Shown in pieces: positions 6,783 through 43,853 of a stretch of 64,000 nucleotides of DNA; position 1 is the stretch's first letter, and the number at the start of each line of letters is the position of its first letter. The stretch spans positions 992,001 through 1,056,000 of the forward strand of contig NZ_CP132384.1 in the NCBI RefSeq assembly GCF_030758775.1. Direction: 5' to 3'. The notes under the pieces are model-generated. The model saw only the letters and a program-made list of their open reading frames with translations, was not told where the DNA came from and did not search any database. The position numbers and the translations under genes were made by a program. This DNA comes from Bifidobacterium asteroides. GTDB lineage: Bacteria; Actinomycetota; Actinomycetes; Actinomycetales; Bifidobacteriaceae.

Positions 6783-7552
6783 AGTCCGACCTCCTTATCC
6801 AGGGCCTTGATCTCAGCTGCAGAGAGCACCCGGTAGGAGCCAGGACGGATCTCGCCCAGCCGGATGGGGCCGATCTGGGTGCGCACCAGCCGGGTCACCG
6901 GGTAGCCGATGGCGCCGAAGATGCGCCGGACTATCCGGTTCTTGCCCGAATGCAGGACCACCTTGACGATGGTGTGCTCGCGGTTGTGGTCGATGATGGC
7001 GCAATGGTCCAGCCGGATCAGGCCGTCGTCCAGCTCCACCCCCTGGGTGACCAGCCGTCGGCAGACGTTGCCGCCGATGTGGCCGCTGAGCGTGGCAATA
7101 TAGGTCTTTTCCACCTCGTAGCGCGGGTGCATGACGTGCTGGGCCAGCTCCCCATCGTCGGTCATGAGGATCAGGCCCTCTGAGTCATAGTCCAGCCTGC
7201 CCATGTGGAAGACGCGCTCGTAACGGTCCCCGATGATGTCGCGCAGGGTGAACCGGCCCTTGGGGTCGTCCATGGTCGAGAGGACCTTGCGCGGCTTGTT
7301 CAGGGCAAGGGTGACATGCTTGTCGTTCAGATGGATGCGGGATCCATCCACGCGGATCTGCTGATGGGAGGGGTCCACCCGGCTGCCCAGCGTGGTGACC
7401 AGCTTGCCGTCGACCTCGACCCTGCCCTGGGTGATGATCTGCTCGCATTTGCGACGAGAGCCGAAGCCGGCCTGGGCCAGCACCTTCTGGAGGCGGATGC
7501 CCTCCTCCCCCTGTTCGCGCGCTCTGATCGCCTGTGTGTATGGATGTGGCAT
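6779..7552 (-). CDS. rluB: Ribosomal large-subunit pseudouridine synthase, RsuA/RluB family
   Basis: A 257-residue enzyme that isomerises a uridine in rRNA. An N-terminal S4 RNA-binding domain ([21 protein letters not shown]) is followed by the catalytic domain with the [18 protein letters not shown] motif, whose Asp is the nucleophile, and a C-terminal [16 protein letters not shown] segment. ATG 7552 is chosen because GGGAG lies six bases upstream; a longer in-frame version has no ribosome site. It is the first gene of a pair with cmk-der. RluB (23S) is likelier than RsuA from length and the actinobacterial neighbourhood, but the site is not certain. Confidence 0.9.
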
Positions 7553-7722
7553 CGTTCTCCCAACGTGGCCTGATAGATATGTAACGGATGACGTTCTGGA
7601 CGACCGCAGCCGCCGAAAGGTCATATCATACTATATCGGAGCCTAGGGAAGTGTTGTTGGCTTGCCCTAAGCTGGAAGCTGTTGTTGTTCATTGTCGTCG
7701 AAGGGATTGCAAGGTGGGGAAC

Positions 7723-8943
7723 ATGACTATGGAAGCAAGTGCTGAGCCGGTTCTCGAACAGGCCGACGGGCAGGTTGCCGCAAAGCCCGTCCGCAGGCGG
7801 ATCAGGCCCCGTGATGTTCGTTGGATTCGTGCGGCCGCAGAGCTGGTGGGCACCTTCCTGATCTGCGCGGTCATCTACCTGTCCTACAGCTTCGGCCAGC
7901 TGGTCATGGGCCAGCCCAGCGTGGTGCTGCCGGTCCTGGGAACCGCCCTGACCTACCTGGTCGTTACGGCCATGCTGGGCGGCGTCTCCGGCGGCCACTT
8001 CAACCCCGCCGTGACCGTTGCCGCCATGTTCACCTCGCAGATCAGCATGGTGGACGGGCTGATCTACATCGTCGCCCAGGTGATCGGCGCTATTGGCGCC
8101 GGTGCGCTCGCCGTTGCCCTTGTGCCAGTCAGCAAGTCCGTGCCGGACAGGACCTGGCTCATGTTCTCGGTCAACGGTTTTTCAGGCGGCTCGCCCGCTG
8201 CAGCCACCCTGGGCCAGCAGCACATCGCCTTCGGGGCGCCCATGGCCATCGTGGTTGAGCTGATCGGCTGCATGATCGTGGTGGCTGCGGCCATCACCAC
8301 CCTGCGCTCCGACGGCCGCGCCCGTCGCAACCATGCTCTCTATACCGGGCTGGCCTACGGCGTCGGCGTGCTGGTCACCTACCCCATCACCTGCTCGGGA
8401 CTGAACCCGGCTCGTTCCACCGGTATCGCCATCTTCGCCCAGTCCAAGCACATGGCCGTCAGCCCGATCTCCCAGCTCTGGCTCTTCTGGATCTGCCCCC
8501 TGCTGGCTGCCTCTCTGGTGGCCCTGGTCATCATCATGACCAGCATCATCACCGACAACATGGCCATGCGCGCCATGGGTGCCGCCACTGATGCGCAGCT
8601 AGTTGTACAGGTGGATGCAGATGCTCAGGCACAAGCACAAGCTGATGCTTTTGCCCCCGGTGCCCAGGCTCAGGATCAATCGGCCCAGGCATCTCCTGCT
8701 CCGGTTCAAACCCCTGGTGCTGATACAACTGACACGGCCGCCCCTGCAGACACCACTGCTCAGACCGTCGATGTATCTTCTCTATCCGATTCCGATGCAG
8801 AGCAGGAGGCTGATGCTGGAAAGGATGCTGTTGCCCCAGCTAATGCAGGAACCATTCCCGATCTGCAGGTCGAGCCCCTTCATAGTGCTTCGGAAACAGA
8901 AGACAGTGATGATCAATCCGAAGACAAGCCTACTGAAGGCTGA
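7723..8943 (+). CDS. Aquaporin/glycerol-facilitator family channel with long acidic C-terminal tail
   Basis: A 406-residue MIP-family channel. The two pore motifs are present (GGHFNPAVT near residue 90 and GLNPARS near 228), with six transmembrane segments between about residues 35 and 275. After the last helix comes a tail of about 125 residues rich in Ala, Gln, Asp, Glu and Pro with no hydrophobic segment, probably disordered and cytoplasmic. Ordinary aquaporins end shortly after helix six. ATG 7723 follows AAGGTGGGGA. The gene is divergent from the pseudouridine synthase gene. Solute (water, glycerol or another small molecule) cannot be assigned. Confidence 0.85.
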   Translation: MTMEASAEPVLEQADGQVAAKPVRRRIRPRDVRWIRAAAELVGTFLICAVIYLSYSFGQLVMGQPSVVLPVLGTALTYLVVTAMLGGVSGGHFNPAVTVAAMFTSQISMVDGLIYIVAQVIGAIGAGALAVALVPVSKSVPDRTWLMFSVNGFSGGSPAAATLGQQHIAFGAPMAIVVELIGCMIVVAAAITTLRSDGRARRNHALYTGLAYGVGVLVTYPITCSGLNPARSTGIAIFAQSKHMAVSPISQLWLFWICPLLAASLVALVIIMTSIITDNMAMRAMGAATDAQLVVQVDADAQAQAQADAFAPGAQAQDQSAQASPAPVQTPGADTTDTAAPADTTAQTVDVSSLSDSDAEQEADAGKDAVAPANAGTIPDLQVEPLHSASETEDSDDQSEDKPTEG

Positions 8944-8949
8944 GAGGGG

Positions 8950-9297
8950 TCACAGCATCAGCTGAATGCTGGTGTAGGTGACCAGCAGGCCGATGCCCAG
9001 GGCGATGCTGATGAAGGCATCGAAGGGCACCGACCGGACCTTCCAGGGGCTGCGTTCCTTGAGGATCAGGCGCAGGGCGCCGCAAACCAGGGCCGCGACG
9101 GACACCAGTCCAGTCGCGGCCCATGTGTATCCGCAGAAGGCCACGAGCGCGGCGACAAGCACCACGAGAAAGATGATGGCCTCGCAGATAGGGCGACCCT
9201 CCTGAGCCTCCGAGACGAAGGGGTGGCCTCGACCAGAAGTCTTGGGCGGTTGCGGGGGCTTGGGGTTCGGGTTTTCGGTCTTAGCCGCGTCTGCCAT
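8950..9297 (-). CDS. DUF3017 membrane protein
   Basis: A 115-residue protein with a proline-rich N-terminus and three hydrophobic segments (about residues 40-60, 62-80, 93-112). The pattern ALRLILKERSPWKVRSVPFDAF between segments two and three is characteristic of the actinobacterial DUF3017 family, usually found near purH or folD. Here it lies about 1.6 kb from purH, consistent with that. AGGAG lies just before ATG 9297. Function is unknown. Confidence 0.7.
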   Translation of the reverse strand: MADAAKTENPNPKPPQPPKTSGRGHPFVSEAQEGRPICEAIIFLVVLVAALVAFCGYTWAATGLVSVAALVCGALRLILKERSPWKVRSVPFDAFISIALGIGLLVTYTSIQLML

Positions 9298-9356
9298 GTT
9301 CTCCTGCCTTCTGCACATGCTCTGTCGGTTCGAGCCTACCAGTGCTGTTGACGCAA

Positions 9357-9402
9357 AGCGACCGTGCCGCCATCGCCCTTGGACGATGATGGCACGGTCG
9401 CT
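9357..9402 (-). terminator. Hairpin terminator after the aldehyde dehydrogenase gene
   Basis: The arms at 9357-9375 and 9384-9402 pair over 19 positions with only two non-Watson-Crick pairs, around an 8-base loop. On the minus strand it is followed by TTTGCGT, a weak U-tract. It separates the dehydrogenase from the DUF3017 gene. Confidence 0.6.
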
Positions 9403-9430
9403 CTTTCAACAAGGAGCCGGAGCAGTCCGA

Positions 9431-10804
9431 TCAGTTCTTGTGCTGGAAGATCAGGTGCTCGTTGGCGAAGGTGTCGAAGCCCAGGCTGTAGAGCTCACGG
9501 CCATAGCCGGAGTTCTTGATGCCTCCGAAGGGCAGCTCGGGCATGGTCACCCATCCGCCGTTGATGAAGGTCATGCCGGTCTCGATGCGACGGGCCAGGG
9601 CATCCGCATGGTCGGTATCCGAGGAGAAGACCACACCGCCCAGGCCGTAGCTGGAGTCGTTGGCCAGCTCGATGGCCTCATCCTCGTTGGCCACCTTGTA
9701 AATGGATGCCACAGGGCCGAACATCTCCTGGTTGTAGACAGGGTTGTTACGGTCGATGTCCGTCAGAACCGTCGGGGTGAAGAAGGCCCCCGGCGAATCG
9801 TAGGGCTTGTTACCGTAGACGACCTTGGCTCCACCGGCCACTGCCGTTTCGACCTGCTTGGCCAGGTTGTCGCGGGCGGAGACCATGCACATGGGGGCCA
9901 GCGTGGTTTCGGGGTTGCTGGGATCGCCCAGAACCGCGTGCGAGAAGGCGTCGACGATGAGCGAGACGAAGTCGTCGTAGCGGTTCTCCGTGACGATGAA
10001 GCGCTTGGAGGAGGTGCAGACCTGGCCGGCGTTCGTCAGCCTGGCGCCTGGGGCCACCTTCTTGAGCAGATCCCAGTCAGCGTCATCCAGGACGATGAAG
10101 ACGTCGTTGCCGCCCAGCTCCATGGAGGACTTCTTCAGGTTGGCTCCAGCCGACTTGGCCACCGAGGCGCCGCCGCGCTCCGATCCGGTCAGGGCCACGC
10201 CAGAGACACGAGGATCGGCGATGGCACGGTCCACCTGATCATAATTGACGAAGAGATTGGTCAGGCTGCCCTCGGGGGCTCCTGCTTCTCTTACGGTCTG
10301 TTCGAAGGCTACAGCCGAGCCGGGCACGTTGGAGGCGTGCTTGAGGATCATGGGGTTGCCCAGAATGAAGTTGGGGGCGAACACGCGCATGATCTGGTAG
10401 TAGGGGAAGTTCCAAGGCTCAACCATGAACACGATGCCGGTGGCCTGCTTGACGTAGTAGGCCTTGCCGGCGGGGTTGTCCAGGGGGACGGGAGCCAGCA
10501 GCTCCTCGGCGTGATCGGCGAAGTAGTCGGCGATGTCGGCGCACAGCTCCACCTCGGCACGGGCCTCGCCCACCAGCTTGCCCATATCCAGGGTCAGGTT
10601 GGCTGCCAGGGCATCCTCGTTCTGGCGGAAGAGCTTGGCGACCTGGTGCAGTTGTGCGGGACGGTCTCCCGGGCCCTCCTGCTTGCGCCAGGTCTTGTAA
10701 AGGTCATGGCCACGGGCCAGGGCGTTCTCCAGGTCTTCATCGGTGGCATCTGGATACGTCTTGATCAGTTGGTTGTTAAAAGGATTGACTGTCTGATAGG
10801 TCAC
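9431..10804 (-). CDS. NAD(P)-dependent aldehyde dehydrogenase, succinate-semialdehyde type
   Basis: A 457-residue aldehyde dehydrogenase, converting an aldehyde to the acid with NAD(P). It shows PWNFPYYQIMR near residue 138, the catalytic glutamate in MELGGND near 233, and the catalytic cysteine in NAGQVCTSSKR near 267. Length and the PWNFP/KHASNVPGSA region resemble E. coli Sad (YneI), the NAD-type succinate-semialdehyde dehydrogenase. The start is GTG at 10804 with GAAGGAG upstream. It stands alone with its own terminator. The physiological substrate is uncertain; redox balancing or detoxification of aldehydes is possible. Confidence 0.85.
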   Translation of the reverse strand: MTYQTVNPFNNQLIKTYPDATDEDLENALARGHDLYKTWRKQEGPGDRPAQLHQVAKLFRQNEDALAANLTLDMGKLVGEARAEVELCADIADYFADHAEELLAPVPLDNPAGKAYYVKQATGIVFMVEPWNFPYYQIMRVFAPNFILGNPMILKHASNVPGSAVAFEQTVREAGAPEGSLTNLFVNYDQVDRAIADPRVSGVALTGSERGGASVAKSAGANLKKSSMELGGNDVFIVLDDADWDLLKKVAPGARLTNAGQVCTSSKRFIVTENRYDDFVSLIVDAFSHAVLGDPSNPETTLAPMCMVSARDNLAKQVETAVAGGAKVVYGNKPYDSPGAFFTPTVLTDIDRNNPVYNQEMFGPVASIYKVANEDEAIELANDSSYGLGGVVFSSDTDHADALARRIETGMTFINGGWVTMPELPFGGIKNSGYGRELYSLGFDTFANEHLIFQHKN

Positions 10805-10935
10805 AATATCTCCTTCGAATTATGGGTACCTAGTCAGCATCATCGCTGGTCAGTTCTTTCAGCATATCACCGCATTGGACCCCACGGTCAAGGAATTTGT
10901 CGCAGGGCGACATTCGGCCGCAGGGTCCGGTTTCA

Positions 10936-12537
10936 TCAGTGGAAGAAGTGGCGTGTCCCGGTCAGATACATGGTCAGATCGGCGTCCTGGGCGGCCTTGA
11001 TCACCTCGGGATCACGGATGGATCCTCCCGGCTGCACCACGGCCCTGATGCCGGCCTGGATCAGATATTCCAGACCGTCGGCGAAGGGGAAGAAGGCATC
11101 GGATGCGGCCACCGAGCCCTTGGCCCGGTTGCGGCCCTCATCCAGCGTGTTGGCCCGCTCCACGGCCAAATGGCTGGAGTCAACCCTGTTGACCTGGCCC
11201 ATGCCGATGCCCACGGTGGCTCCCTGGTTGGCCAGGAGCACGGCGTTGGACTTGACCGAGCGGATGGCCCGCCAGGCGAAGGTCAGATCATCCATGGTCG
11301 CCTGGTCGGCGGGATTGCCGGAGACCAGACGCCAGGTGGAGGGATTGTCTCCCGGGGCGTCGATCAGGTCGGGTGTCTGCACCAGGGCTCCCCCGTCGAT
11401 TTGACGGATGATCGGGCGCTGACGCGGGCGGCGTTGCACAGACAGGATGCGCAGGTTCTTCTTGGTCCGCAGCAGGTCCAGGGCCTCGGGCTCATAGCCT
11501 GGTGCCACAATCACCTCGGTGAAGACCGGCTTGATCTGCTGGGCCATGGTCAGGGTGACCGTGCGGTTGGCGGCGATGACCCCGCCATAGGCGCTCATGG
11601 GGTCGCAGGCGTGGGCGCGGCGGTGGGCCTGGGCGATGTCCTCCCCCACGGCCAGACCGCAGGGGTTGGAGTGCTTGACCACGGCCACTGCGGGCAGGTC
11701 GGGGAAGTCCCAGACCGAGCGCCATGCGGAGTCAGCGTCCACATAGTTGTTGTAGCTCATTTCCTTGGCCCCGCCCAGGTGCTCTGCCGCAGCGAAGCCG
11801 TCCCGGTCCAGCGGGTCCAGGTAGAGGGCGGCCTTCTGGTGGGGGTTCTCCCCGTAGCGCAGTTGGTTGGCCAGACGCCAGGTGCGGGTCATCGCCTGTG
11901 CTGGTTTCTGATCCTCTGCCTTGTCCTGCTTGTCGTCAACCCATGTGCGTGCTGTCCACTCGGCGATGGCCGCATCATAGGAGGCTGTCAGAGCGAAGGC
12001 TTTGGCAGCCAGACGTCCGCGCTCAGCCAGGCTGAAACCGGTGCCGGAGGCGATGCGATCGGCGGCCAGGGCATAGTCGTCCGGGTCGGTGATCACAGCC
12101 ACGCTGGCATGGTTCTTGGCGGCGGCCCGGATCATGGCAGGGCCGCCGATGTCGATGCGCTCCAGGCACTGGTCCGCGTCGGCGCCCTCGAGGACGGTCT
12201 GTTCGAAGGGGTAGAGGTTGACCACCACCAGGTCGAAGGGGGCTATGCCCAGGTCTTTGAGTTGCCGGACATGGTCGGGGTTGGTCATGTCGGCCAGCAG
12301 CCCGGCATGGATGTGCGGATCCAGGGTTTTGACCCGGCCGTCAAGGCTCTCAGGGAAACCGGTGACCTTTTCCACCGGGGTGACCTGGACGCCCAGATCC
12401 TGCAGCTTCTTTGCGGTGCTGCCGGTGGATACGACCTCGGTGCCTGCCTGGCGGAAGGCCGATGCCAGGGCCTCAAGGCCCTGCTTGTGGTAGACCGAGA
12501 CCAGCGCTCGGTTGATGGTTCGATTCGTGGTGACCAT
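10936..12537 (-). CDS. purH: Bifunctional AICAR transformylase/IMP cyclohydrolase
   Basis: A 533-residue cytosolic enzyme catalysing the last two steps of IMP synthesis. The N-terminal cyclohydrolase half (about residues 1-195) includes the [10 protein letters not shown] and ISTGGTA-like [10 protein letters not shown] segments. The C-terminal transformylase half has the KHSNPCG motif near residue 275 and [12 protein letters not shown] 12537 follows AGGAG; the open frame extends further upstream into a region of arginine-rich nonsense. It lies downstream of the DUF6350 gene with a 52-base gap, the same order as sucC-sucD-perM-purN-purH in mycobacteria, but purN is missing here. Confidence 0.95.
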
Positions 12538-39230: not shown

Positions 39231-39339
39231 TCCCCTGCAGGCACGCCCGAAACGCGGGCCTGCGGGAATACAGCAACAGACTTCCCGGTAGTGCATAGTG
39301 AATGTGATTCCATCGGGAACCCAAATAAGGAGTGACAAG

Positions 39340-40450
39340 ATGGCAGAAAATGCAAACACCCAGCGCACCAGCGATTCAGGTGTCTCGATCTGGTTGGACG
39401 ATCTGAGCCGCACCCGCATCGAGTCGGGCAATCTGCAGCAACTGATCGCCGAGCGCAATGTGGTGGGCGTGACCACCAACCCCTCGATTTTCCAGAAGGC
39501 CCTGAGCCAGGTGGGTCCCTATGACGAACAGCTCAAGCAGCTGGGCCGCATCCCCGTCGAGGAGGCCGTCCGCGAGCTGACCACCACCGATGTGCGCAAC
39601 GCCACCGACATCTTCCGCGAGGTCGCCGAGAAGACCGACTACGTGGATGGACGCGTCTCCATCGAGGTCGATCCTCGTCTGGCCCACAACACCGAAGAGA
39701 CCGAGAAGCAGGCCGAAGAGCTTTGGAACAAGGTCGATCGTCCCAACGCCATGATCAAGATCCCCGCCACCCTGGAGGGCCTGCCTGCCATCACCGCCAC
39801 CCTGGCCAAGGGCATCTCGGTCAACGTGACCCTGATCTTCTCCCTGGAGCGCTACAAGCAGGTCATCGACGCCTTCATCGAGGGCATGGTCCAGGCCGAC
39901 AAGAACGGCCATGACCTGAAGCACATGGGCTCGGTCGCCTCCTTCTTCGTCTCCCGCGTGGACACTGCGGTTGACAAGCTGCTCGAGGCCAACGGCTCTG
40001 ACGAGGCCAAGTCCCTGGAGGGCAAGGCCGCTGTGGCCAACGCCCGCCTGGCCTACGAGCTCTTCGAGAACGGCCTTCGACAGCGATCCTCGCTGGGCCG
40101 GCCTGGAAGCCAAGGGCGCCAAGCGTCAGCGTCCGCTCTGGGCCTCCACCGGCACCAAGAACGCCGCCTACTCCGACTGCAAGTACGTGGACGAGCTGGT
40201 GGCCCCTGACGTGGTCAACACCATGCCTGAGAAGACCCTGAACGCTCTGGCCGATCACGGCAACGGCGCTCCCTCTGTCAAGGGCACCTATGAGGAGAGC
40301 CACCAGGTGATGCAGAAGCTGGCAGACCTGGGCATCAACATCAAGGATGTGACCGACAAGCTGGAGGCCGATGGCGTCGCTGCCTTCATCGACTCCTGGG
40401 ATTCGGTCCTCTCCGACGTGCAGAAGGGCATCGACCGCGTCAACGGCTGA
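39340..40450 (+). pseudogene. tal: Transaldolase reading frame interrupted by a +1 frameshift
   Basis: The frame from ATG 39340 (AAGGAG upstream) encodes a bifidobacterial-type transaldolase, with [12 protein letters not shown] near residue 45, the Schiff-base lysine in NAMIKIPAT near 142, and [10 protein letters not shown] near 205. After AYELFEN at 40071 one extra G (40072) shifts the frame, and the continuation [21 protein letters not shown]... to the stop at 40450 is in the next frame. Removing one base restores about 369 residues. Both halves are otherwise intact and strongly codon-biased, so the break is very recent or a sequence error. Confidence 0.9.
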
Positions 40451-40482: not shown

Positions 40483-40495
40483 CTGCCAATAAAGA

Positions 40496-40533
40496 TTGTG
40501 CCCCCGTCCGGCTCAAACCGGACGGGGGCACAA
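40496..40533. terminator. Bidirectional terminator between tal and hemH
   Basis: A perfect 16-bp stem (40496-40511 with 40518-40533) and six-base loop between convergent genes. On the minus strand it is followed by a T-rich stretch (CTTTATT), so it is strongest for the haem operon. Confidence 0.85.
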
Positions 40534-40543
40534 TTCGTATCGG

Positions 40544-41467
40544 TTACTCGGCCTTGGTCTCCTCGACCACCTGCTGCAGGGTGGCGATCAGGGCTGGGCT
40601 GTCGTTGGGCATGTTCAGCCTGGTCAGGGTGCCGCCGGCGGACTCGATGGCCTTGGCCAGCTCCATGTCCACGTCGTAGCAGATCTCCAGGTTGTCGGCG
40701 ATGAAGCCGATGGAGGCGGAGACGATGGTCTTCATGCCGCTCTCGGTGATCAGATCCTTGGCCACCTTGACGAAATCAGGCCCGATCCAGGGCTCCTGGG
40801 TGCGGCCTGCCGACTGCCAGGCCAGCACGTACTGGTCCTCATTGAGGCCGGCGGCCTGGGCCACGGCATTGGACAGACCGATGACCTCATCCTTGTAGGG
40901 ATCCCCTCCCTGGATGATGCGCAGGGGCAGGGAGTGGGCGCTGAAGATCACCTTGGTGTCCGGCCGGTCGGTCAGATCCTTCTTGGCCACCAGCTGGTCG
41001 CTCCAGAAGTGGATCAGCTCCTGGTGGTTCCACCAGGACCGCACCGGCAGGTATTCCATGCCCGGATGGGCCTCGATGGCCTTGCGGGCGCGGTTGTGGT
41101 AGTCCTCGCTCGAATAGGAGGAGTACTGCGGGGCCAGGGGCAGGCCGATCACCCTGGTGATGCCATCGGCGGCGATCTGGTCGACCGCATCCTGGATGAA
41201 GGGGGTGATGTACTTCAGCCCCTCGTAGACCTTGTAGGCGCCGGGGTGGGCCTTGTCCAGCGCAGCCTGGAGGCCGTCGCGCTGGGCCGTGGTGATCCTG
41301 GCCAGGGGCGAGGGCAGACCGATGGCCTTGTAGCGGCCGACCAGCTGGTCCATGAGCGGCTTGGGCGGCTCCTGCCCATGGCGGATGTTGGTGTAGTACC
41401 CCCTGATGTCGGACTCCTGGTAGGGGGTGCCGTACGCCATGAGGAGGACTGCTGTAGGTTCAGTCAT
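40544..41467 (-). CDS. hemH: Ferrochelatase, coproporphyrin type
   Basis: A 307-residue enzyme expected to insert ferrous iron into coproporphyrin III (CpfC). It shows LLMAYGTP at the N-terminus, the catalytic histidine in FSAHSLPLR near residue 182, and the conserved glutamate in IGFIADNLEICYDVD near 265, where the usual DHLE is DNLE. It is short and lacks an iron-sulphur C-terminus, like monoderm enzymes. ATG 41467 overlaps the transporter stop by eight bases; a TTG at 41473 is the alternative. Its operon mate is coproheme decarboxylase, so the coproporphyrin-dependent route is inferred. Confidence 0.92.
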   Translation of the reverse strand: MTEPTAVLLMAYGTPYQESDIRGYYTNIRHGQEPPKPLMDQLVGRYKAIGLPSPLARITTAQRDGLQAALDKAHPGAYKVYEGLKYITPFIQDAVDQIAADGITRVIGLPLAPQYSSYSSEDYHNRARKAIEAHPGMEYLPVRSWWNHQELIHFWSDQLVAKKDLTDRPDTKVIFSAHSLPLRIIQGGDPYKDEVIGLSNAVAQAAGLNEDQYVLAWQSAGRTQEPWIGPDFVKVAKDLITESGMKTIVSASIGFIADNLEICYDVDMELAKAIESAGGTLTRLNMPNDSPALIATLQQVVEETKAE

Positions 41468-42857
41468 CAGCAACTTCTTTCTGTGAAAATGGAATGCAGT
41501 ATGTCAGGCCGATATTGACCAGGGCTATGACGATGACCACCAGGAACATGTTCCTGTAGGAGGCCAGACCGGCCTGTCCGCCCACCTTGCCCAATTCAAT
41601 GGCCGAGGCGAAGAGCAGTGGGGCGATGGTGGTGCCGATCTTCTTGCAGGCCGACAGCCCGCCGATGGCCTGCATGCGGTTCTCGGGCCCGGCCAGCCTT
41701 CCGGCGATGACCTGGAGCGGCGAGGACATCATGGAGCCCATGCCGACCCCCATCAGGAAGGACAGGACCATGAAGAGCTGCAGGTTGTGCAGGGTCAGGG
41801 TGATCACCAGGGCCATCAGGCCTATCAGCGACGACGAAAAGACCAGCGTGGTCCGGTAGCCGAACTTGTCGACCAGGAGACCGCCCAGCCAGGACCCGAC
41901 CACGGAGCCGAGCCCGACGCCGACCATGACCATGCCGGCCGAGCGGACCGGGAGCCCGAAGACGGAGTGGACATAGGTCGGAATGTAGACGAAGAGGGAG
42001 AAGAACATGCCTCCCAGCGTTCCCAGCAGCAGGGTGAGCCCGTAGGAGGGCAGCTTCAGCAGGCGGATGGGCAGGAAGGGCATGGTCTCCTTGGAGTCGC
42101 CCAGCCCCCGCTCATGTACCAGGAAGACCGCGCCGGCCACCACTGTGACCAGGAGGCATCCGATGATCAGGGCCAGATAGGTCGTGCCGTACTGGAGGAA
42201 GGTGATCGCCACCATCAGCAGGGCCAGAGCGATGCTGAAGGAGCCCAGGCCCAGGTAGTCGGTCTTCCAGGCGCGGTCGGTCTGGGAGTCGCCCATCATG
42301 AACCAGGCCAGAATAAACAAAATGGCCAGGAAGGGCAGCATCATGAAGTAGTAGGCCCGCCATCCGTGGGTGATGCCCAGGAGCATGCCCGAAAGGACCG
42401 GGCTGACCATGGCGGAAAGGCCGGCGATGATGCCCACCGTGGAGACCTTCCTGCCCTGGTTGTTCCTGCGGGCGCGCTGCAGAAGGACGTTCATGGACAG
42501 GACCATGATGCCGCTGTCTCCCAGGGACTGGATGAACCGGCCCAGCAGCATGACCGCATAGTTGGGCGAGACCGCCGTCATCAGACATCCAAGGAACCAG
42601 AAGGCCAGCTCCCAGAGGAAGACCTTCCTGGTCCCGTGGGCGTCGGAGAGGTTGGAGGTGATGGGGGTGCCCACCACCAGTCCCAGGGTGTAGAGTCCGA
42701 CCACCCAGGAGGAGCCCATGGTGGTCAGGCCGAAGGTCCGTGTGATGGACGGCAGCATGGTCGGCACCGCTCCCCCATCCAGCTGGGTGATGAAGACGAT
42801 GACCATGAAGAACCATATGGGCGTGGAAAGGATCGATCTTCTCTCTCTTGCAGACAT
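41460..42857 (-). CDS. MFS transporter of the haem operon
   Basis: A 465-residue major-facilitator transporter with about 14 hydrophobic segments, resembling the DHA2 drug/proton antiporter family. It has SWVVGLYTLGLVVGTPITSNLSDAHGTRKV (motif A region) near residue 45 and GRFIQSLGDSGIMV near 100. ATG 42857 is four bases after the hemQ stop and its stop overlaps hemH, so all three are one translation-coupled operon. Substrate is unknown; a porphyrin (import, or export of excess) is suggested by context only. Confidence 0.85.
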   Translation of the reverse strand: MSARERRSILSTPIWFFMVIVFITQLDGGAVPTMLPSITRTFGLTTMGSSWVVGLYTLGLVVGTPITSNLSDAHGTRKVFLWELAFWFLGCLMTAVSPNYAVMLLGRFIQSLGDSGIMVLSMNVLLQRARRNNQGRKVSTVGIIAGLSAMVSPVLSGMLLGITHGWRAYYFMMLPFLAILFILAWFMMGDSQTDRAWKTDYLGLGSFSIALALLMVAITFLQYGTTYLALIIGCLLVTVVAGAVFLVHERGLGDSKETMPFLPIRLLKLPSYGLTLLLGTLGGMFFSLFVYIPTYVHSVFGLPVRSAGMVMVGVGLGSVVGSWLGGLLVDKFGYRTTLVFSSSLIGLMALVITLTLHNLQLFMVLSFLMGVGMGSMMSSPLQVIAGRLAGPENRMQAIGGLSACKKIGTTIAPLLFASAIELGKVGGQAGLASYRNMFLVVIVIALVNIGLTYCIPFSQKEVADD

Positions 42858-42861
42858 GGTG

Positions 42862-43620
42862 TTACTGTCCCATCTGGTCCGTGAGCAGCCTGTCAATGCG
42901 CTCGGGATCGGTATGGGTGCCTACCAGGAAGTAGGGGAATTCTCCGTAGATGGAGCTGGCTTCGATGTAGCGCATCTCGGTGACGATCTTCTTGAATTGG
43001 ACAGGGTCGTCGGCGAAGAGGGTGACGCCCCACTCGTAGTCGTCCAGGCCGATGGAGCCCGTCAGGATGATGGAGACCTTGCCGGCGTATGAGCGGCCGA
43101 TCTTGCCGTGGTCGTGCATATAAGCCTTGCGCTGGTCGTAGGGCAGCGTGTACCAGTTGGCGCCTGGGACGCGGGTCTTGGACATGGGGTAGAAGCAGAT
43201 GTAAGGCTTGTCGGGCGTCTTGGGATGCAGGCTGGCGTTGACGTAGGACCAGCCGCGGTCCGTGGTCGGCTTGCCCGAGTAGAGGCCCACCTCGGTGACC
43301 GACACATAGGAGATGGTCGGCTCCAGGTAATCGGAGATGCGCAGCTTCTCCAGGGAGGTCTCGACCTCCTGCAGCTGGTCCAGGGTCTCCCTGAGGACCA
43401 TCAGGCCCAGGTCGGCCTTCTGCCCGTTGACCTGGCACCAGTAGTGGCTTCCCTGGCCCTGGGACTGGACCGCGTCCAGCTGTGCGGCCAGGGCCTTGAA
43501 CTCATCCAGGCATTCCCGGCGTTCGCCCTGGGGCACTCGGCGCCACTTGGCCCAATCGATCTTCCAGAAGAGGTGGAGGCAGAACCAGCCCTCCAGGCTC
43601 GGTGCAGCTTGCTCAGCCAT
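42862..43620 (-). CDS. hemQ: Coproheme decarboxylase (HemQ/ChdC)
   Basis: A 252-residue chlorite-dismutase-fold enzyme that turns coproheme into haem b using peroxide, the last step of the coproporphyrin route. The catalytic tyrosine lies in CFYPMSKTR near residue 148, and the haem-ligand histidine in YMHDHGKIGRSYAGKVS near 172, followed by GSIGLDDYEWGVTLFADD. These are HemQ hallmarks and not those of true chlorite dismutases. ATG 43620 follows AAGGAAG. First gene of the operon with the MFS transporter and ferrochelatase. Confidence 0.93.
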   Translation of the reverse strand: MAEQAAPSLEGWFCLHLFWKIDWAKWRRVPQGERRECLDEFKALAAQLDAVQSQGQGSHYWCQVNGQKADLGLMVLRETLDQLQEVETSLEKLRISDYLEPTISYVSVTEVGLYSGKPTTDRGWSYVNASLHPKTPDKPYICFYPMSKTRVPGANWYTLPYDQRKAYMHDHGKIGRSYAGKVSIILTGSIGLDDYEWGVTLFADDPVQFKKIVTEMRYIEASSIYGEFPYFLVGTHTDPERIDRLLTDQMGQ

Positions 43621-43805
43621 GAGCACTTCCTTTCGCTTGCTTAGCTTGCACGGCATTGTGTGATGCGCCGCTCGTCGGGCACACCATTCTCCACTCTATC
43701 CGTCAGACGGCTGAATTGTTGGATTATCGATGCATTGTGAATGACATATTCTGGTAATCGTCAAGGAGTATGAGCACTGCACTAAAGTCATTCTGATACA
43801 GAAAA

Positions 43806-43825
43806 ACCCCGGTCAATGCCGGGGT
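43806..43825 (-). terminator. Intrinsic terminator after secG
   Basis: ACCCCGG (43806-43812) and CCGGGGT (43819-43825) form a 7-bp stem with a six-base loop. On the minus strand it is followed directly by TTTTTC, 29 bases beyond the secG stop. Confidence 0.85.
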
Positions 43826-43853
43826 CAGAAATTTCAGGTATTGGCGACCGGAA

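What the first reader, a model, noticed from the sequence alone, without database searches (positions are those of the whole stretch)
40544..43620. Haem-finishing operon (coproheme decarboxylase, MFS transporter, ferrochelatase) in a bifidobacterium
The three genes overlap or nearly touch and encode the last two coproporphyrin-route enzymes with a transporter between them. Bifidobacteria are usually regarded as unable to make haem, and no earlier haem gene, nor the coproporphyrinogen oxidase cgoX, is in the window. One hypothesis is salvage: the transporter imports coproporphyrin released by other gut bacteria, iron is inserted, and ChdC finishes haem b. It would supply a cytochrome bd oxidase or haem catalase, both reported in bee-associated bifidobacteria.
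Basis: partly seen in the sequence, partly recalled or inferred. Interest (0 to 1): 0.75.

Follow-up and report, generated by a model that had tools for sequence, protein, structure and literature searches.

The report
Haem-finishing salvage cassette of bee bifidobacteria
A Bifidobacterium in whose genome no porphobilinogen synthase (an early haem-making enzyme) was found carries a three-gene operon, present in the same order in lactobacilli, that is predicted to turn coproporphyrin, likely imported from neighbouring microbes, into haem that would serve its oxygen-handling enzymes.

Summary
In detail: chdC (42862-43620), an MFS gene (41460-42857) and cpfC (40544-41467) form one tight minus-strand unit between terminator-like hairpins. 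The closed 2.08-Mb genome has one cydA (cytochrome bd) and one catalase match, but no HemB, no CgoX over cut-off and no convincing HemE. HemB is absent from 27 of 27 genus genomes; 13 of the 27 carry the intact cassette and all 13 have cydA and catalase. The MFS belongs to a small, sharply bounded family: the 21 loci from a pattern scan of ~85,000 species genomes all have chdC before and cpfC after it, in Bifidobacterium and Lactobacillaceae. Conversely, ChdC occurs in 5 of 397 sampled genomes of the lactobacillar family, all five cassette genomes. ChdC is of Bacillota type with its catalytic residues, so the unit likely crossed phyla. Best reading: a salvage cassette that imports coproporphyrin III and finishes haem b. 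Import is inferred; the characterised MFS relatives are mostly exporters, and 11 lactobacillar plasmids keep cpfC (11 of 11) and mostly the MFS (9 of 11) but no intact chdC. Terminal haem steps were noted for B. asteroides in 2012; I saw no report of the transporter-containing cross-phylum unit.

The parts
42862..43620 (-). chdC, coproheme decarboxylase (252 aa), Bacillota type
   Evidence: NF008913 304.6 bits over cut-off 253, HemQ_actino only 70 of 235; Tyr, Lys and His of the catalytic site conserved
41460..42857 (-). MFS transporter (465 aa), 14 long helices in the model; predicted coproporphyrin importer
   Evidence: PF07690; model pLDDT 83.4; between chdC and cpfC in 21 of 21 scanned loci
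40544..41467 (-). cpfC, coproporphyrin ferrochelatase (307 aa)
   Evidence: TIGR00109 over cut-off; best solved relatives are Bacillus/Listeria ferrochelatases, several titled coproporphyrin III ferrochelatase; His, Glu, Tyr positions conserved
40495..40534 (-). terminator-like hairpin after cpfC, between convergent tal and cpfC
   Evidence: 18-pair stem
43805..43826 (-). terminator-like hairpin after secG, upstream of the cassette
   Evidence: 8-pair stem and T-run
43621..43760 (-). upstream region of chdC, conserved among relatives; presumed promoter region
   Evidence: alignment of window and 10 relatives; no sigma-70 consensus match on this strand

Best explanation
The three genes form one conserved cassette, chdC-MFS-cpfC, in a genome where no porphobilinogen synthase was found, and they are predicted to import coproporphyrin III made by other microbes, insert iron (CpfC) and decarboxylate the product to haem b (ChdC). 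Steps: (1) the MFS protein likely brings coproporphyrin III (or a metal form) across the membrane, inferred from its linkage; (2) CpfC would insert ferrous iron to give coproheme, inferred from family and active site; (3) ChdC would use hydrogen peroxide to turn coproheme into haem b, inferred from family and active site; (4) haem would serve the cytochrome bd oxidase and catalase encoded elsewhere in the genome (genes shown, use inferred). CgoX would not be needed if the imported form is already oxidised coproporphyrin, which fits its absence.
For: Families and catalytic residues. HemB in 0 of 27 genus genomes, with 11 of 14 control genomes ringing. CgoX over cut-off in 0 of 27 (4 of 14 controls over). 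cydA in 24 of 27, including all 13 intact-cassette genomes, and in 11 of 11 cassette genomes outside these 27. Catalase in 13 of 13 intact-cassette genomes against 5 of 14 others, Fisher p 0.0006, relatedness not corrected; for cydA 13 of 13 against 11 of 14, p 0.22. MFS beside chdC and cpfC matches in 21 of 21 loci of two phyla. ChdC in 5 of 397 sampled genomes of the family of Agrilactobacillus composti, all five already known cassette genomes. The three genes are side by side in 13 of 13 genus genomes and mostly absent or decayed together in the other 14. Literature: PRL2011 consumed oxygen, B. coryneforme, B. indicum, B. actinocoloniiforme and B. bohemicum did not (PMC3447821), and absence of genes such as the H2O2-dependent haem synthase was offered as a possible reason for three of them (PMC9004370). 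Coproporphyrins are named as growth factors for a Leucobacter in a title cited by PMC6868719.
Against: Best family and solved-structure matches of the MFS are drug or lipid exporters (EmrB, SdrM, QacA, EfpA, 8pnl), although uptake carriers such as MCT1/MCT8 and DgoT stand lower in the same fold list. No transport assay exists. On 11 lactobacillar plasmids cpfC is open in 11, the MFS in 9, and chdC in none (cut in 10, one stop in 1), so CpfC or MFS plus CpfC may have a use without ChdC. G001 likewise keeps cpfC with no chdC and a partial MFS. Eleven genus genomes have cydA without an intact cassette, so haem can reach such cells another way or the oxidase is idle. One cassette genome, C. versmoldensis, has HemB, though among cobalamin genes. 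A coproporphyrin supplement did not free Leucobacter strain GP of its helper (PMC6868719). In ChdC the distal glutamine is isoleucine, and a second position that is Arg in 92 of 95 more distant homologues is Ser. URO-D gives weak over-cut-off matches in 14 of 27 genus genomes. HemA, HemC, CgoN and haem ABC importers were not searched.
Confidence: 0.6

Rival explanations
1. The MFS exports excess porphyrin or haem, protecting the cell, while coproporphyrin enters by another route; CpfC and ChdC still finish haem.
For: Closest families and structures are exporters: TIGR00711 EmrB 113.5 bits, SdrM 89.4; 8pnl, EfpA, NorA, QacA by fold; 14-helix topology. On plasmids MFS and cpfC outlive chdC.
Against: An exporter for detoxification should also occur away from chdC and cpfC; the scan found it only beside them, 21 of 21 loci. 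In 27 of 27 genus genomes no HemB was found, so there should be little own porphyrin to export. Resemblance to EmrB is below its curated cut-off, 113.5 of 230.2.
Confidence: 0.2
2. The MFS imports another form: coproheme, zinc coproporphyrin, or haem itself, with CpfC acting on the metal or being partly redundant.
For: Zincmethylphyrins are named as growth factors beside coproporphyrins in a cited title (PMC11139205 reference list). Invariant Lys406 and Arg387, not shared by most distant relatives, fit an anionic substrate only in general.
Against: If coproheme were imported CpfC would be unnecessary, yet a cpfC match follows the MFS in all 21 loci, in one of them three times, and cpfC is the last gene to decay on plasmids. 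If haem were imported neither enzyme would be needed.
Confidence: 0.13
3. The unit is a relic of a formerly complete haem pathway whose early genes were lost, with no present function.
For: Decay is seen in G018 (fragments, in-frame stops) and G001.
Against: ChdC is of Bacillota type by model score and groups with lactobacillar cassette proteins at 100/98 support (no actinobacterial-type ChdC was in that tree). All three genes are open in 13 of 27 genus genomes, at 91-99% protein identity in the ten compared, with catalytic residues invariant.
Confidence: 0.05

Closest known systems
Coproporphyrin-dependent haem pathway of Bacillota and Actinomycetota (CgoX, CpfC, ChdC)
   Same: Ferrochelatase and Bacillota-type ChdC families are met
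   Different: No HemB, no CgoX over cut-off, no convincing HemE here; an MFS gene lies between cpfC and chdC
Haem-dependent respiration of Lactococcus lactis
   Same: In the control rows L. lactis rings for CydA, ferrochelatase and PF06778 but not for HemB: terminal enzymes without the early pathway
Leucobacter growth on coproporphyrins released by Sphingopyxis (Bhuiyan et al., seen only as a cited title)
   Same: Cross-feeding of coproporphyrin to an actinobacterium
   Different: Seen only as a citation; no transporter named in what I saw; the related strain GP was not rescued by coproporphyrin
Putative terminal haem steps and respiration in B. asteroides PRL2011 (PMC3447821)
   Same: Reports enzymes for the final three steps of haem synthesis from coproporphyrinogen III, cydABCD, catalase and oxygen use
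   Different: The passages and the one section I read do not describe the operon, its transporter, its lactobacillar relatives, or feeding with coproporphyrin; haemin and protoporphyrin were supplements there

Membership tests
Coproheme decarboxylase, Bacillota type (NF008913) | score over curated cut-off | tested here: met
   304.6 of 253 bits
Coproheme decarboxylase, Bacillota type (NF008913) | catalytic Tyr, propionate-4 Lys and proximal His | tested here: met
   Y144, K148, H171; same in 140 of 140 aligned rows (window, 19 loci, the 120 best listed homologues); roles from PMC7611857 passages, residue numbers recalled
Coproheme decarboxylase, Bacillota type (NF008913) | distal Gln of Bacillota enzymes (regulatory, not essential) | tested here: not met
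   Ile184 here; Ile or Pro in the other Bifidobacterium loci aligned, Gln in the seven lactobacillar loci aligned
Coproheme decarboxylase, actinobacterial type (NF042928) | score over curated cut-off | tested here: not met
   70 of 235 bits
Coproporphyrin ferrochelatase (CpfC) | ferrochelatase family score | tested here: met
   TIGR00109 215.6 of 124.6 bits; the subfamily NF009095 is under its own cut-off, 283.9 of 455
Coproporphyrin ferrochelatase (CpfC) | His183, Glu264, Tyr13 of the Bacillus enzyme (roles recalled) | tested here: met
   H179, E262, Y13 aligned
Coproporphyrin ferrochelatase (CpfC) | substrate is coproporphyrin III rather than protoporphyrin IX | not testable with these tools
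   sequence nearest to Bacillus and Listeria enzymes is only suggestive
Complete coproporphyrin-dependent haem pathway | HemB | tested here: not met
   0 of 27 genus genomes, own closed genome included
Complete coproporphyrin-dependent haem pathway | HemE | tested here: not met
   own genome: partial 40-bit URO-D match in a 247-aa open frame; two ORFs there match no NCBIfam family
Complete coproporphyrin-dependent haem pathway | CgoX | tested here: not met
   TIGR00562 31.9 of 97.85 bits, profile positions 2-73 only
Complete coproporphyrin-dependent haem pathway | alternative oxidase CgoN | not tested
DHA2 drug:proton antiporters (MFS) | 14-helix MFS fold | tested here: met
DHA2 drug:proton antiporters (MFS) | EmrB subfamily score | tested here: not met
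   113.5 of 230.2 bits
DHA2 drug:proton antiporters (MFS) | drug export | not testable with these tools
   no transport data

The most novel reading that the evidence does not exclude
A dedicated coproporphyrin III importer family exists, packaged with CpfC and ChdC as a mobile cassette that turns porphyrin-less fermenters of two phyla (bee bifidobacteria and food or gut lactobacilli) into scavengers that build haem from porphyrin leaked by their neighbours.
Probability: 0.53. Interest if true: 0.8.

Novelty: new variant of a known kind. Interest (0 to 1): 0.62.

Why it matters
No bacterial coproporphyrin importer turned up in the listings of my paper searches, and how haem auxotrophs of bee guts and fermented foods feed their oxidases is, as far as I know, open. 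A three-gene unit whose transporter I found nowhere else gives a single, easily tested candidate. If right, coproporphyrin is a shared good in these communities, B. asteroides respiration would depend on neighbours, and the supplements tried in the 2012 study (haemin, protoporphyrin IX) were not the natural substrate.

Tried and rejected
Rejected: a hidden complete haem pathway in the own genome. Rejected: an actinobacterial-type ChdC (model scores; the tree held no actinobacterial-type row and does not test this). Rejected: that the HemB of Companilactobacillus versmoldensis shows haem synthesis; it lies with hemL, hemC, hemA, a weakly scoring HemD-like protein and cobQ, and none of the six proteins scanned from that stretch is HemE; HemE was not searched in that whole genome. 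Led nowhere: a regulator box shared by chdC, katA and cyd upstream regions was not seen by eye; no sigma-70 consensus at chdC; the fold search gives only the general MFS fold; Lys405 of the MFS is matched by Arg in 57 of 70 more distant MFS hits, so it is not special, while Lys406, Arg387 and Asp114 are rare or absent there, too little to name a substrate. The deeper forks of the trees are partly open, and CpfC was not put in a tree. Comparing the empty site in cassette-less genus members was dropped for want of searches.
Full report
WHAT IS THERE. On the minus strand the window holds chdC (42862-43620, 252 aa), an MFS gene (41460-42857, 465 aa) and cpfC (40544-41467, 307 aa). The first two are 4 bases apart and the last two overlap by 8 bases; each begins with ATG and is free of internal stops. 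A terminator-like hairpin follows secG upstream (43805-43826) and an 18-pair hairpin follows cpfC (40495-40534), so the three genes look like one transcription unit of their own; a promoter was not identified. GC content is 0.632 against 0.637 for the window, so there is no compositional sign of a recent arrival.

THE ENZYMES. ChdC passes the curated cut-off of NF008913 (304.6 of 253 bits) and is far from the actinobacterial model NF042928 (70 of 235). Its nearest solved relatives are the enzyme of 1t0t/5t2k (Geobacillus, recalled) and Listeria lmo2113. The catalytic tyrosine, the lysine that holds propionate 4 and the proximal histidine are conserved in the window protein and in 140 of 140 aligned rows, the 120 homologues among them being the best listed ones (roles from passages of PMC7611857; residue numbers recalled). 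The distal glutamine of Bacillota enzymes is isoleucine here; exchange of that glutamine for alanine raised the peroxide needed (same paper). A further position, Arg in 92 of 95 more distant homologues, is Ser here. The ferrochelatase passes TIGR00109; its nearest solved relatives are Bacillus and Listeria enzymes, and the His, Glu and Tyr positions recalled as catalytic are kept.

THE REST OF THE GENOME. The window lies in a single contig of 2,083,947 bp, 99.96% complete. HemB is found in 0 of 27 genomes searched in the genus, the own one included, while 11 of 14 control genomes ring. CgoX: all 27 give only matches under the cut-off; the own one is the FAD motif of a protein of another family (NF005549, 1067.8 bits). 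URO-D: 14 of 27 have weak matches of 40-82 bits over Pfam's cut-off; the own one is 40 bits, partial, and two ORFs there match no NCBIfam family. So by sequence the cell is not expected to make coproporphyrin. Predicted consumers of haem are there: cydA (C1:309913-311310) and a catalase (C1:269162-270298), one match each. In the cydA stretch I read the ORFs before cydA as an NADH dehydrogenase, cydB and two cydC/cydD-like genes; only cydA was scanned with a family model.

PHYLETIC PATTERN. In the genus, ChdC matches occur in 14 of 27 genomes (13 intact, G018 in two fragments), ferrochelatase in 15 of 27 (the same 13, a fragment with two stops in G018, an intact one in G001), and the MFS in 14 of 27 at E 1e-60 (the same 13, and a partial one in G001). 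By coordinates the three genes are side by side in all 13. All 13 have cydA and a catalase; of the other 14, 11 have cydA and 5 have a catalase (Fisher p 0.0006 for catalase and 0.22 for cydA, uncorrected for relatedness).

THE TRANSPORTER FAMILY. A search of 5.8 billion proteins lists 50 clusters at 43-100% identity and then a fall to 34% or less (only the 7993 candidates with most shared words were scored, and 120 of 258 hits are listed). The named ones of the 50 are Bifidobacterium and Agrilactobacillus. A scan of about 85,000 species genomes with two peptide patterns from 19 aligned members gave 21 loci: 13 Bifidobacterium and 8 Lactobacillaceae (Agrilactobacillus 3, Companilactobacillus 2, Lentilactobacillus 1, two metagenome-assembled genomes). 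All 21 have a chdC match directly before and a cpfC match directly after the MFS. In four of the 21 one gene is incomplete or interrupted (L119 chdC, L121 cpfC, L122 MFS, L123 chdC), and L116 has three successive cpfC-like matches. In the reverse direction, ChdC occurs in 5 of 397 genomes sampled from the family of Agrilactobacillus composti, and all five (G028, G029, G031, G032, G036) are cassette genomes. One ChdC relative named Lacticaseibacillus paracasei (P0138) was not placed in a genome. Of the 11 cassette genomes outside the 27, 11 have cydA and 10 lack HemB; the exception, C. versmoldensis, has HemB among cobalamin genes.

ORIGIN AND MOBILITY. In a tree of 39 ChdC proteins, the bifidobacterial and lactobacillar cassette proteins fall, with 15 rows in no group, in one 27-row set at 100/98 support, apart from the other Bacillota rows; no actinobacterial-type ChdC was included, and the tree is midpoint-rooted. 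The MFS tree is compatible. Deep forks are partly open, so the direction of transfer is not settled. Among lactobacilli the unit moved recently: L119, L122 and L123 are 99.4-99.8% identical to L120 in DNA, across Companilactobacillus, Lentilactobacillus and an assembled genome. Eleven plasmid records carry a match at 99% identity or more (Lactiplantibacillus 8, Limosilactobacillus 2, Loigolactobacillus 1; 8 mobilizable, 1 conjugative, 2 non-mobilizable). All 11 were read: cpfC is open in 11, the MFS in 9 (a stop in L149, broken in L151), chdC in none: nine keep only its last 96 residues, one its last 52, and one has the full length with a stop.

MECHANISM. CpfC and ChdC act on coproporphyrin III and coproheme in the known pathway, the cell is not expected to make these, and a transporter that I found nowhere else sits between the two genes. 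The simplest reading is import of coproporphyrin III, iron insertion and peroxide-driven decarboxylation to haem b. CgoX is not needed if the imported form is the oxidised porphyrin. Shown: gene content, order, open frames, active-site residues, linkage and phyletic pattern. Inferred: transport direction, substrate, donor organisms and use of the product. The serious objections are that the best characterised relatives of the MFS are exporters, and that plasmids and G001 keep cpfC without chdC. Lys406 in helix 13 and Arg387 are invariant in the 19 aligned members and rare or absent in 70 more distant hits, compatible with a polyanionic substrate but not proof.

LITERATURE. For B. asteroides PRL2011, enzymes for the final three steps of haem synthesis from coproporphyrinogen III, cydABCD, catalase and oxygen uptake of 6.2 nmol/min/mg were reported; B. 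coryneforme, B. indicum, B. actinocoloniiforme and B. bohemicum showed no uptake (PMC3447821, passages and section 9). Haemin and protoporphyrin IX were supplements there. A later survey suggests that absence of genes such as the H2O2-dependent haem synthase may explain the lack of oxygen uptake in three of those species (PMC9004370, passages). That difference matches what this cassette would predict, but the species differ in other genes as well. I saw no report of the chdC-MFS-cpfC unit or of a bacterial coproporphyrin importer in searches, mostly seen as listings; passages of PMC6868719, PMC11139205 and PMC10991733 were read. Most subscription journals are missing from that library.

VERDICT. 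Real, well conserved, and probably a coproporphyrin salvage cassette. Known: the enzymes and, in outline, terminal haem steps in B. asteroides. New in what I could see: the tightly linked transporter, the cross-phylum three-gene unit, and its spread on plasmids.

Noticed in passing
window 39298-40450: The transaldolase gene is split into two overlapping frames here, while 10 of 10 relatives L103-L112 have one open frame; sequencing error or a real lesion in a central sugar pathway gene cannot be told apart.
   Followed up: partly
L136-L139 and L145-L152 (11 plasmids): Plasmid copies of the cassette in Lactiplantibacillus, Limosilactobacillus and Loigolactobacillus keep cpfC open in 11 of 11 and the MFS in 9 of 11, but chdC in none; three kinds of chdC lesion, one shared by nine plasmids. 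CpfC, or MFS plus CpfC, may be useful without ChdC.
   Followed up: partly
L116 9037-14436: Bifidobacterium sp. ESL0784 has three successive ferrochelatase-like matches after the MFS, 64%, 46% and 47% identical to the window's.
   Followed up: no
L127 (G018:C18) 8056-11800: In G018 remnants of chdC and cpfC lie after tal and before an ORF that I read as tpiA, the same site as in the window, so the cassette seems to have decayed in place.
   Followed up: partly
L126 (G001:C1) 7221-8985: G001 keeps an open cpfC and the second half of the MFS, with no chdC match in the genome.
   Followed up: partly
G002, G005, G006, G013-G015, G017, G021, G026: These nine genus genomes have cydA but neither a chdC nor a ferrochelatase match; how their oxidase gets haem is unexplained.
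   Followed up: no
control rows: Lactococcus lactis rings for PF06778, ferrochelatase and CydA but not HemB: another fermenter with the terminal enzymes and no early pathway.
   Followed up: no
L128 1190-1729 (G000:C1:1687189-1687728): A URO-D-like gene lies in an open frame of 247 aa in the own genome, against frames of 348-420 aa in the other genomes with a match; it may be a shortened copy.
   Followed up: no
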